From Helicobacteraceae bacterium (GTDB lineage: Bacteria; Campylobacterota; Campylobacteria; Campylobacterales; Sulfurimonadaceae), in assembly GCA_027063225.1 (NCBI GenBank), contig JAMOSG010000039.1, forward strand, positions 1-64,000: a DNA stretch of 64,000 bases, written 5' to 3'. Shown piece after piece: positions 977 to 7,515 of the stretch. The translations under genes and the position numbers were made by a program. Numbering within the stretch: the stretch's first letter is position 1; each line of letters starts with the position of its first letter. The notes below the pieces were generated by a model. That model saw only the letters and a list, made by a program, of their open reading frames with translations. It had not been told where the DNA came from and did not search any database.

Positions 977-2595
977 TATGCTTTCACACTACAAAAATCA
1001 AAAACTCTTCCATCAAAGAGTCCTTTATCACTTAGTTTTAGCTCTGGAATAACTAAAAGTGCCATAAAAGAGAGTGTCATAAAAGGGGCTTTGAGGGTTG
1101 AGCCTAAAGTTTGTTTTGCAAAATTATCTATTGCATCATATTTTTTTGCAACTTCAAAACCATCTTCATTGCTCATAATGCCACCAACACTTAGTGGAAG
1201 ATGTTTGGTTGTTGTTTTATTTAATGCACAAACACCACCTTGTGAATTTATAATAGTGTTGATAGCTTTTGAGATTGATTCATCATCAACACCAACAGCG
1301 ATAATATTGTGTGAATCGTGTGCAATACTTGAAGCGATTGCTCCCTCTTTTAATCCAAAACCATAAATAAACCCAATAGCAATAGGGGTATTTGCGTGGC
1401 GGTTAAGTACAGTGATTTTTAAAATATCCTCTTGTATATCGCTAGAGAAATTTCCTGTAATATTTGTTTGGTAGATTTTCTCTTTTGTAAAAAGCTCCCC
1501 ATCAAAAGCTTCTATAACACGAAGGGTGTCATTTTCTACAAAAAATTCTAAATCTTTAGGAGTTGTTTTTGTTGCGTGGAAATTGTTGATTGCTTTTTGC
1601 TCTATGTTTGGTAGGAGTGTTTTGCCATCTTGTGCAACAACTTCTCCTGCAATAACTGTTTGAAGCACCTCAAAATTTTCTAAATCTTTTACAAGAATAA
1701 AATCTGCACTATCTCCAACTTGCACTTTTCCAACATCTAAGTTGTAATACTCTATTGGGTTAAGTGAAGCGATACGAAGTGTATCAAATAAATCATATCC
1801 ATTAGCAATACTTCTTTTTACAAGTTCATTAATATGTCCATGCACTAAATCATTAGGGTGTTTATCATCTGAACAAAACATCAAATCATTTGGAAATTTT
1901 GCAATAAGAGGGTGGAGTGCTTCATAGTTTTTTGCAGCACTTCCTTCACGAATTAAAATTTTCATTCCACGCTCAATTTTCTCTTTTGCTTCTTCATAAG
2001 AGGAGGCTTCATGGTCTGTTGTTATTCCTGCATCTATATATTTTTGTAAATCTTCTCCACGTAGCATTGGAGCGTGACCATCTACAACTACACCAGCATC
2101 TTTTGCAGCTTTTATTTTAGCTAGGAGCTCCTCATCGCCATTTATTACATTTGGAAAAGCCATAACTTCCCCTAGATGGTTTATCTCTTTATGTTTTAGA
2201 AGTGTTTGTATCGCTTCTACATCAAGTGTAGCGCCACTACTCTCAAACGGAGTAGCTGGAACACAAGAAGATGCTCCAAAGAAGAAATGAAATGGAGTTT
2301 TATTTGCATTTGCAATCATAAACTCTACACCCTCTATGCCATTGACATTTGCTATTTCGTGTGGATCACTTACTGTTGCAACACTTCCATGCAACACGGC
2401 AACTCTTGCAAATTCTGAAGGGATAAGCATAGAGCTTTCTATGTGGATATGTGCATCAACAAATCCTGGTAAAATGTAGTTGTTACACTCTTTATCTATT
2501 TTAGTAATAGAGGCTATTTTATTGTTTTTGATCTCTATATGGGCAGGGTAGATTGTTTTGTTTTGGATATCTACATAATTTGCTTCTATTTGCAT
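976..2595 (-). CDS. ade: Adenine deaminase
   Basis: Converts adenine to hypoxanthine and ammonia for purine salvage. At 539 residues it has the usual length of Ade-type amidohydrolases. The metal-binding DAHIHIESS motif lies near residue 48, followed by the family-specific SDPHEIANV, HLGEVMAFP and later CSDDKHP. The start ATG is preceded by AAAGGAT and lies 10 nt inside the end of the upstream HepT gene, so translation is probably coupled to that toxin gene. acpS follows with a one-base overlap. Identity is secure. Confidence 0.93.
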   Translation of the reverse strand: MQIEANYVDIQNKTIYPAHIEIKNNKIASITKIDKECNNYILPGFVDAHIHIESSMLIPSEFARVAVLHGSVATVSDPHEIANVNGIEGVEFMIANANKTPFHFFFGASSCVPATPFESSGATLDVEAIQTLLKHKEINHLGEVMAFPNVINGDEELLAKIKAAKDAGVVVDGHAPMLRGEDLQKYIDAGITTDHEASSYEEAKEKIERGMKILIREGSAAKNYEALHPLIAKFPNDLMFCSDDKHPNDLVHGHINELVKRSIANGYDLFDTLRIASLNPIEYYNLDVGKVQVGDSADFILVKDLENFEVLQTVIAGEVVAQDGKTLLPNIEQKAINNFHATKTTPKDLEFFVENDTLRVIEAFDGELFTKEKIYQTNITGNFSSDIQEDILKITVLNRHANTPIAIGFIYGFGLKEGAIASSIAHDSHNIIAVGVDDESISKAINTIINSQGGVCALNKTTTKHLPLSVGGIMSNEDGFEVAKKYDAIDNFAKQTLGSTLKAPFMTLSFMALLVIPELKLSDKGLFDGRVFDFCSVKA

Positions 2596-3029
2596 TGTTT
2601 ATCCTTTATTATTTTGTGTAAGTAGTGTAAATCTTCATAATAGTAAGAGTTTAATGCTTCTTGAATATAGATTTCATAATTTTGAATTTTAGAAAGCATC
2701 TCTATAAGTAACTCTTTTAAAAGTGGTAAATACTCCGTAATAATTTCCCAAACCATATATTCGTCAATACCTCTATAATTATGAGATATTTTATCTCTCA
2801 TAGCAGAGATACTTTTCCAATCTAATTTTTGAGAAGTTTTTAAATTTTCATCAATTTTTTTATTCTCTTCCCCAATTGCTATGAGTAAATTTACAGAAGC
2901 ATTAAAATTTAACTGCTTATTAGCAAAATAGAATGTTTCGCTATCTTTAAAATCTTTACTATAAATAAAAATCTTTTCTATTGCTTCTAACATTGTAAGG
3001 ATATGCACAAGATTTTTTGAGTCAAACAT
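2586..3029 (-). CDS. hepT: HepT-like HEPN toxin (DUF86), type VII toxin-antitoxin
   Basis: A HEPN-fold RNase toxin of about 147 residues. The RX4HXY motif is visible as R78, H83 and Y85 in RDKISHNY; in characterised HepT proteins the arginine and histidine are catalytic and the tyrosine is AMPylated by MntA. A longer reading starting at 3050 is possible, but the ATG at 3027-3029 fits the family N-terminus (MFDSKNL). It overlaps the stop of the MntA gene by 8 nt, the typical arrangement for this pair, and its own end overlaps the start of ade. Toxicity is inferred from family and context. Confidence 0.85.
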   Translation of the reverse strand: MFDSKNLVHILTMLEAIEKIFIYSKDFKDSETFYFANKQLNFNASVNLLIAIGEENKKIDENLKTSQKLDWKSISAMRDKISHNYRGIDEYMVWEIITEYLPLLKELLIEMLSKIQNYEIYIQEALNSYYYEDLHYLHKIIKDKQCK

Positions 3030-3306
3030 AAATAAAACTATCCTTTGCATGAAGCTTAATAAGTGGATTAAATTTTTTATAGTTTAATAAATCTACTTTC
3101 TTTTGGAAGGTATCTTCTAACTCTTTTTCTAACTTTATATATTTTTCAAAGGAGAGCCTATGTGTTTCATCTTCTATATAAGCTATATCTATATCACTCT
3201 TTTCGTTTGCTTCATCTTTTGCAAATGAACCAAATAAAATAAAATGTTTTAAATGGTAAAATCTTTTTTTAGATTGTAATACTTCTAAAATTGTTTCTTT
3301 ATTCAT
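3022..3306 (-). CDS. mntA: MntA-like nucleotidyltransferase antitoxin
   Basis: A minimal nucleotidyltransferase of 94 residues. The active-site signature GSX10DXD is complete: G26-S27 and D38/D40 in GSFAKDEANEKSDID. MntA antitoxins neutralise HepT by AMPylating the tyrosine of its RX4HXY motif, and both partner motifs are intact here, so the pair looks functional. An upstream in-frame extension to 3396 exists but lies inside the preceding gene. The ATG at 3304-3306 gives the normal family length and overlaps that gene's stop by 8 nt, suggesting translational coupling. Confidence 0.87.
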   Translation of the reverse strand: MNKETILEVLQSKKRFYHLKHFILFGSFAKDEANEKSDIDIAYIEDETHRLSFEKYIKLEKELEDTFQKKVDLLNYKKFNPLIKLHAKDSFIYV

Positions 3307-4279
3307 AATTTTTCTTATCCTCATAAGGAATAAATTTTTCTTCACAATATTTTTCAATTTCAGAATCACTCGTAAAATAACTATCGCAAAAGTCACTTAA
3401 TTCTTTTTCAATCGATTTATAATTTCTTTCATCTATTGTTAAAATTCGCTCTATTAGTTCTATAAATTTCTCATATTTTTCATTTACCCTACAAAGTTTA
3501 TCAATAGTTTTAAAATCTAACTCTTTATATTTTGCTTGAAATAAAATTCTACTTTCATAAGGGTTCGATTTAAGTTCAATTATACCTATACCAAATGATT
3601 GATTAAGTCTTTCCATCTCATCTCTTAAATTATCACTAATTTCAAGAGCTACTAAGTAACCGTAGTTTGCCCAACTTGAATTTGAAACTGCTTGAAAATA
3701 GGACTTTTTAAGTTCATAATCTGTATTAATCTCTTTTTTTATTTCATAAGATGTTATTTTAAATGTGTCTGCTTTATTTAATATTTTCATAAAAGCTTTA
3801 TTAACTGGTGAAGTTAGTTGTAAAAACTCAATTCCTATCATGTCTGAATGTATCCATTTTTGATGGTCATCTTTAGAGTTTTTAGATTCTTCATGTAAAA
3901 TTGTTTTTGCATAAATATTTTGATTTTTCAAATAACTACTCAAAAGCTTATGTAAGTCTCTTTCATTGTATGAATTCTTCATTTTTTGTGATTTTTTAGT
4001 CTCTTTAGTTGATATTACATTTTCTTCAAAACTTATTTCATTTTCATACTTTGATAAGTAATATAAATAACCTCGACCTTTGATGTTTTTAATTCTTTTT
4101 ACTCTTGTATCATTATCTCGTATAAAATCACCAAGAAGTGCAGCTATTGTTGATTCTGGAGTCTTTCCTTTTGTAAAGATGTAATAGCTTTTTTCGATTA
4201 TATGCTTATAAATAATATTATGTGCTGAAGGAACTTTTAAATCTTCTAAACTTTTTAGTATTGCTTCTTTGATTGTCAT
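3299..4279 (-). CDS. HARE-HTH domain protein with restriction-endonuclease-like C-terminus
   Basis: A 326-residue protein. Residues about 1-75 resemble the HARE-HTH DNA-binding domain (also found in ASXL, HB1 and restriction enzymes), with TIAALLGDFIRDNDTRVKRI followed by GRGYLYYL. After a charged linker, residues about 105-325 look like the C-terminal region of COG2958-type proteins: an acidic-hydrophobic segment (HSDMIGIEF) followed by YEIKKEI, which could be a PD-(D/E)XK-like metal site. It heads the MntA-HepT operon and overlaps MntA by 8 nt. No methyltransferase is nearby, so it is not an ordinary restriction-modification enzyme. The domain calls are from memory and the function is inferred. 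Confidence 0.6.
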   Translation of the reverse strand: MTIKEAILKSLEDLKVPSAHNIIYKHIIEKSYYIFTKGKTPESTIAALLGDFIRDNDTRVKRIKNIKGRGYLYYLSKYENEISFEENVISTKETKKSQKMKNSYNERDLHKLLSSYLKNQNIYAKTILHEESKNSKDDHQKWIHSDMIGIEFLQLTSPVNKAFMKILNKADTFKITSYEIKKEINTDYELKKSYFQAVSNSSWANYGYLVALEISDNLRDEMERLNQSFGIGIIELKSNPYESRILFQAKYKELDFKTIDKLCRVNEKYEKFIELIERILTIDERNYKSIEKELSDFCDSYFTSDSEIEKYCEEKFIPYEDKKNYE

Positions 4280-4340
4280 TTTTTATCCTAGTATTACTCG
4301 CAATGTGAACATAATCGAATGATTTGAATAGTTTTATATT

Positions 4341-4497
4341 TTACCATTGATACTCTTCACATTCATCAAGTGGAGTATTAATACCATACTATAATACTTT
4401 CTCTTATATTTTGCATTGAAGTTAAATGGATTGCTTCTTCAATAAGTTGTAAAATATTTGTACTTGCTTGATTTGCTGAAATAGTTTTTTGTAACAT
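4341..4497 (-). pseudogene. Remnant of a YefM/Phd-family antitoxin gene
   Basis: The ATG lies 2 nt after the tgt stop with an in-place GAGGA ribosome site. The frame reads MLQKTISANQASTNILQLIE, which resembles the start of YefM/Phd antitoxins. It then jumps directly to EAIHLTSMQNIRESII, which resembles the C-terminal part of the same family, so the middle (about 35-40 residues) seems deleted. The frame stops at 4378-4380. A shift of one base restores the expected tail, GINTPLDECEEYQW, ending at 4341. No partner YoeB/Txe-like toxin is found. I read it as a decayed antitoxin with an internal deletion plus a frameshift. Confidence 0.65.
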
Positions 4498-4499
4498 TT

Positions 4500-7515
<3,016 letters not shown>

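What the first reader, a model, noticed from the sequence alone, without database searches (positions are those of the whole stretch)
4341..4497. Decayed YefM/Phd antitoxin with internal deletion and frameshift
A short frame directly after tgt begins like a YefM antitoxin, jumps to its C-terminal part, and the expected tail (ending DECEEYQW) is found one base out of frame. No toxin partner remains. It shows that this spot between tgt and ade has hosted more than one toxin-antitoxin module.
Basis: partly seen in the sequence, partly recalled or inferred. Interest (0 to 1): 0.5.

Follow-up and report, generated by a model that had tools for sequence, protein, structure and literature searches.

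The report
Shrunken remains of a yefM-yoeB operon
Just after the tgt gene lie the shrunken remains of a common bacterial toxin-antitoxin gene pair; both genes, the toxin included, have lost their middles but keep their ends, which makes it an ordinary dead gene pair.

Summary
On the minus strand, 4497-4341 reads a YefM-like start (residues 1-22), jumps over about 30 residues to the C-terminal part, and continues one base out of frame into GINTPLDECEEYQW-stop. Each piece is the best-scoring site for its part of YefM among about 128,000 six-frame positions of the window. An intact relative from the same order (L160) starts MLQKAI and ends EGINTPLEECEEYQW.

The usual yefM/yoeB overlap (ATGGTAA) is still there at 4347. 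From it runs a 17-codon frame, MVKYK-TIQIIRLCSHCE-stop (4347-4294): the first 5 and last 12 residues of YoeB (L062: MVKYK...TIKIIRMWSHYE) with about 71 residues missing in frame. The operon is 204 bp, against 509 bp in L062.

No relative has yefM or yoeB behind tgt (0 of 59 assessable), so the module probably arrived in this lineage. A separate HEPN/MNT pair lies nearby (3306-2586), so a second toxin-antitoxin module does sit between tgt and ade. This is an ordinary decayed chromosomal type II module, of low interest.

The parts
4378..4497 (-). yefM remnant, first frame: 39 codons plus stop = YefM residues 1-22 joined to residues about 53-66, then out-of-frame VWY
   Evidence: N part and C part each rank first in the window against YefM matrices; aligns to L062 and L160 with 30 codons missing
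4341..4385 (-). yefM remnant, tail in the next frame: GINTPLDECEEYQW plus stop
   Evidence: tail ranks first in the window; L160 ends EGINTPLEECEEYQW
4294..4347 (-). yoeB remnant: MVKYK (first 5 residues) joined in frame to TIQIIRLCSHCE (last 12) plus stop; about 71 codons (213 bp) missing
   Evidence: frame visible; start overlaps the antitoxin stop as in intact pairs (55 of 59 pairs have the same offset); C-terminal block ranks first of 127,930 positions in the window; 1 of 20,000 dinucleotide shuffles reached the score
4500..5615 (-). tgt (queuine tRNA-ribosyltransferase), intact; its stop codon is 2 bases before the yefM remnant's ATG
   Evidence: Pfam PF01702, E 2.5e-155
3299..4279 (-). 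326-aa HARE-HTH-like gene starting 14 bases after the yoeB remnant's stop; accessory gene, matched in 12 of 228 family genomes
   Evidence: PF05066 below cut-off, E 0.025
3022..3306 (-). MNT (MntA-like) nucleotidyltransferase antitoxin, second module of the tgt-ade interval
   Evidence: PF18765 E 3.6e-16; NF047752 57.1 bits against cut-off 60
2586..3050 (-). HEPN (HepT-like) toxin, partner of the MNT gene
   Evidence: PF01934 E 5.4e-12; NF047751 below cut-off

Best explanation
Positions 4497-4294 (minus strand) are a dead yefM-yoeB operon, a type II toxin-antitoxin module. When intact it made an 81-82 residue YefM antitoxin that binds and silences YoeB, a small mRNA-cutting toxin that works on the ribosome (function from established knowledge of the family). 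Here the toxin has lost about 71 of 88 codons, and the antitoxin about 30 codons plus a one-base frameshift. Shown: both genes keep their natural start and end, their order and their start-stop overlap, and both lack their middles. Inferred: neutral decay by deletion. The antitoxin junction falls where the intact L062 gene carries a short direct repeat (the codons for EET at 20-22 and QET at 50-52), so slippage between short repeats is a likely cause of that deletion. Inferred: the toxin was lost before or together with the antitoxin, since losing the antitoxin first would leave a free toxin. The site makes no working antitoxin or toxin now.
For: The frames exist as described. Relatives: 59 YefM loci, each with a YoeB match beside it, 55 of 59 with the same overlap offset and 57 of 59 antitoxins ending in W. 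Four pieces of the remnant, in order, each rank first in the window against matrices of the family. L160 shares MLQK at the start and 13 of the last 14 residues; L062 shares ATGGTAAAATATAA at the overlap. Read through, the remnant matches L160's contig with E 5.9e-14 in a set of 14 loci and L062 with E 2e-10 among candidate stretches. Lengths add up: L062's operon is 509 bp, the remnant 204 bp; 305 = 90 + 213 + 3 - 1. In L062 7 of 7 bases (AAGAGAC) repeat across the antitoxin junction; the match is shorter in the five others shown. The toxin remnant has C where 55 of 56 relatives with a complete end have W, and C where 55 of 56 have the last Y (read; L080 has L, L079 has C; 3 of 59 broken or cut by a contig end). 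Other YoeB loci of the family are broken too: in-frame stop (G011) and frameshift (G152), both beside an intact antitoxin; both genes broken (G129); toxin fragment only (G155); toxin without start or antitoxin (G059).
Against: Family libraries do not recognise the 39-aa or 51-aa sequences, and PF02604 finds nothing in the genome. The toxin piece is only 17 codons; its start overlaps the antitoxin stop and is only partly independent evidence; a search of the own genome with L062's YoeB did not list it. The C part of the antitoxin alone ranks only narrowly first. Microhomology at the toxin junction is weak in the six intact genes compared. Both deletions being in frame would occur by chance about 1 time in 9 and could hint at some constraint. 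The segments for the matrices were chosen knowing the remnant. No close sister genome with an intact locus after tgt was found.
Confidence: 0.93

Rival explanations
1. One reading: only the antitoxin survives in pieces; what follows is unrelated intergenic DNA.
For: Family libraries see no toxin; the piece is short, and the own-genome search with L062's YoeB did not list it.
Against: The frame begins at the exact conserved overlap, its last 12 residues are the best match to the YoeB C-terminus in the window, and a stop follows at once where YoeB stops.
Confidence: 0.04
2. Assembly or sequencing artefact in an incomplete draft genome: the real operon is intact.
For: The genome is a 39-contig draft at 76.66% completeness; a one-base shift is a common error type.
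Against: Two clean internal deletions of 90 and 213 bp, plus changes at two residues kept in 55 of 56 relatives each, do not look like read errors; no PhdYefM match stands elsewhere in the assembly.
Confidence: 0.03
3. A functional miniature: the short frames are kept as translated spacers that couple the downstream HARE-HTH-like and HEPN/MNT genes to tgt.
For: The start is 2 bases after the tgt stop with AGAGGA upstream; both deletions are in frame; the next gene starts 14 bases after the toxin remnant's stop; no terminator-like site and no excess of promoter-like sites in 4200-4620.
Against: The frameshift breaks the antitoxin chain and puts its first stop 37 bases ahead of the tail's stop; the product matched in 1 of 228 family genomes, its own; tight spacing is ordinary in such genomes (general knowledge).
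Confidence: 0.03

Closest known systems
YefM-YoeB type II toxin-antitoxin module (Phd/YefM antitoxin PF02604/TIGR01552; Txe/YoeB toxin TIGR02116)
   Same: Gene order, start-stop overlap, N-terminal and C-terminal sequence blocks of both proteins
   Different: Middle of both genes gone, antitoxin frameshifted, conserved W and Y of the toxin's end replaced; not expected to function
Decayed chromosomal modules such as ccdO157 in Escherichia coli and truncated toxin genes in Pseudomonas (PMC7280312, Discussion read; the ccdO157 paper itself is not held)
   Same: Chromosomal module with a broken toxin, read as relaxed selection
   Different: Here both genes are shortened internally while all four gene ends survive

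Membership tests
Phd/YefM antitoxin | Passes the Pfam PF02604 or an NCBIfam family model | tested here: not met
   no hit for the 39-aa frame (Pfam), the 51-aa read-through (Pfam, NCBIfam) or the own genome (PF02604)
Phd/YefM antitoxin | Sequence homology of the surviving parts to intact YefM | tested here: met
Phd/YefM antitoxin | Complete N-terminal DNA-binding domain followed in frame by the toxin-binding tail | tested here: not met
   About 30 codons missing and a one-base shift before the tail
Txe/YoeB toxin | Full-length chain with its catalytic residues (which residues is recalled, not from a call) | tested here: not met
   17 residues remain against 88 in L062
Txe/YoeB toxin | Homology of surviving ends and position right after yefM | tested here: met
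Functional type II toxin-antitoxin module | Toxin inhibits growth and antitoxin relieves it | not testable with these tools
   Needs expression; both genes are broken, so none is expected
HEPN/MNT (type VII) module at 2586-3306 | Adjacent HEPN and MNT genes passing the family models | tested here: inconclusive
   Both pass Pfam cut-offs; both below the NCBIfam equivalog cut-offs

The most novel reading that the evidence does not exclude
The two deletions were kept in frame because the short frames still act as translated spacers that couple the downstream accessory genes (HARE-HTH-like, MNT, HEPN) to the housekeeping gene tgt, so a dead addiction module was turned into an expression linker.
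Probability: 0.04. Interest if true: 0.35.

Novelty: new member of a known kind. Interest (0 to 1): 0.15.

Why it matters
It shows that a toxin-antitoxin module can shrink inside while both genes keep their ends, so that family models see nothing; such remnants are found by aligning the ends to intact relatives. It also corrects the reading that the toxin had vanished. For this genome it is most likely a neutral relic.

Tried and rejected
Family models and solved structures on the remnant gave nothing of use. Plasmid and phage searches with the 39-aa frame gave no match or chance matches; the read-through gave three plasmid records (Halomonas, Acetoanaerobium, Geminocystis), each holding a yefM-yoeB pair. 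A viral-contig scan found none. Weak DNA matches of the intergenic stretch in other genomes: two were followed and are unrelated. An intact yefM-yoeB after tgt in relatives: none in 59 assessable of 60 fetched; L158 had no tgt anchor, and four of the 59 had under 600 bases of flank. Rfam: nothing at 2500-5800. A chance origin of the toxin piece was rejected.

Limits: the 59 pairs were found by antitoxin searches, so antitoxin loss is under-counted there; some searches looked from the toxin side. One search used 32 toxin ends typed (two broken toxins of 34 left out); one search recomputed from the loci with 54 of 59 antitoxins and 52 of 59 toxins (the others differ in length or lack the end motif). 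Because required the end motif, the W and Y counts come from the unfiltered list; the automatic tally in that call misplaced the motif in many rows, so I read the printed ends by eye.

Full report
What is there. The window belongs to a draft genome of 1,422,909 bases in 39 contigs, 76.66% complete. A genome of the same order (G229) carries a YefM 100% identical to that of locus L062, whose record is titled an uncultured Campylobacterales bacterium, so the host is in that order by inference. On the minus strand tgt ends at 4500. Two bases later, at 4497, a 39-codon frame begins: YefM-like for 22 residues, then IHLTSMQNIRESII, then VWY-stop. In the next frame stands GINTPLDECEEYQW-stop, ending at 4341. 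Reading one four-base step gives the 51-residue chain MLQKTISANQASTNILQLIEEAIHLTSMQNIRESIIYGINTPLDECEEYQW.

The toxin is there too. In L062 the antitoxin gene (3001-3249) and the YoeB gene (3243-3509) overlap in gaATGGTAAAATATAA. The window has caATGGTAAAATATAA at the same point. From that ATG (4347) runs MVKYKTIQIIRLCSHCE-stop, to 4294. The first five residues equal the start of L062's YoeB, MVKYK, and the last twelve align with its end TIKIIRMWSHYE, 8 of 12 identical. A matrix from 52 of 59 toxins puts this block first among 127,930 six-frame positions of the window (14.0; next 9.0). An earlier matrix from 32 ends gave 13.5, next 12.8, and 1 of 20,000 dinucleotide shuffles of the 62-base region reached it. 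The start and the stop are where YoeB's would be.

Chance and homology of the antitoxin pieces. Against matrices from 54 of 59 antitoxins the N part (23.8; next 5.3), the C part (14.7; next 13.0) and the tail (23.2; next 11.8) each rank first in the window; the C part alone would not convince. The nearest relative by these parts is L160 (26 of 46 compared positions), which reads MLQKAIPISQARANIF...SSMPEVRQSIIEGINTPLEECEEYQW and whose toxin starts MVKYKL but is cut by the contig end. NCBIfam calls L062's proteins a prevent-host-death family antitoxin (TIGR01552) and a Txe/YoeB toxin (TIGR02116, 90.8 bits, cut-off 51.8); solved relatives include RelJ, YefM and YoeB.

How it came about. Relative to L062's operon of 509 bp the remnant's 204 bp lack 305: 90 in the antitoxin, 213 in the toxin, 3 for a one-codon difference in the tail, less 1 for the extra base at the shift. 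In L062 AAGAGAC stands at codons 20-22 and again at 50-52, the two sides of the antitoxin junction; five other genes show shorter matches there. This suggests slippage between short repeats. At the toxin junction six intact genes show no strong repeat. That the toxin died first or together with the antitoxin is inference. In line with it, G011 and G152 keep the antitoxin beside a broken toxin; G129 has both broken; G155 holds a toxin fragment without antitoxin; G059 holds a toxin frame without start and without antitoxin. Draft errors could explain some of these. Among the 24 loci, every full-length toxin without a normal YefM, apart from G059's, has another short frame ending at or near the toxin start.

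Residue changes. Of 59 toxins 56 have a complete end; 55 of 56 have W and 55 of 56 the last Y at the places where the remnant has C; L080 has L for W and L079 has C for Y (read).

The site. tgt is found in 206 of 228 family genomes. I fetched downstream DNA for 60 of these; in the 59 with a recognisable tgt end nothing matches yefM, yoeB, MNT or the HARE-HTH-like gene at E 0.1 or better; two marginal matches (HEPN E 0.024 in L104, ade E 0.019 in L106) look like chance. So the module probably arrived after tgt in this lineage, or its intermediates are not among the genomes held. None of the 34 antitoxin loci tested (L062-L095) has tgt near by. The 39-aa product matched in 1 of 228 family genomes, the window's own. 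The wider interval holds a HARE-HTH-like gene (weak Pfam match; 12 of 228 family genomes) and a HEPN/MNT pair, so the interval has held two modules.

Literature. Decayed chromosomal modules are known. PMC7280312 (Discussion read; [quoted passage not shown] coli, citing Mine et al. 2009, which is not held. PMC2701414 (passages seen) notes that pseudogenes and truncations are hard to detect given the small size of these genes. The listings showed no title describing this locus; that is not proof of absence.

Verdict. A dead, internally shortened yefM-yoeB operon, 4497-4294. Ordinary in kind.

Noticed in passing
L231, L233, L234 (genomes G098, G205, G100): Full-length YoeB frames preceded, in the usual overlap, by a 57-63 residue antitoxin-like frame that keeps a YefM-like C-terminal part (YLNSIP...FSEEIEW) but lacks the N-terminal YefM domain; similar in three genomes, so perhaps a real short antitoxin.
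   Followed up: no
L236, L238-L248; L232 and L237: YoeB-like toxins paired with two other short antitoxin types (71-84 residue frames with MQT[VI]TL...; 70-residue frames ending PLNECSKKIEW), in the same or a similar position and ending in W.
   Followed up: no
L230 (G059), L235 (G129), L249 (G155), L078 (G011), L069 (G152): Other broken yefM-yoeB loci in the same family of genomes: toxin without start, both genes broken, toxin fragment, toxin with stop, toxin frameshifted.
   Followed up: partly
window 3299-4279: 326-aa HARE-HTH-like gene, patchy in the family (12 of 228); in other genomes it stands next to a YoeB pair (L194) or an MNT-like gene (L196, L198), so it may travel with toxin-antitoxin modules.
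   Followed up: partly
window 2586-3306: HEPN/MNT pair; the MNT protein also matches PADLOC candidate PDC-S09 (E 8.6e-20).
   Followed up: no
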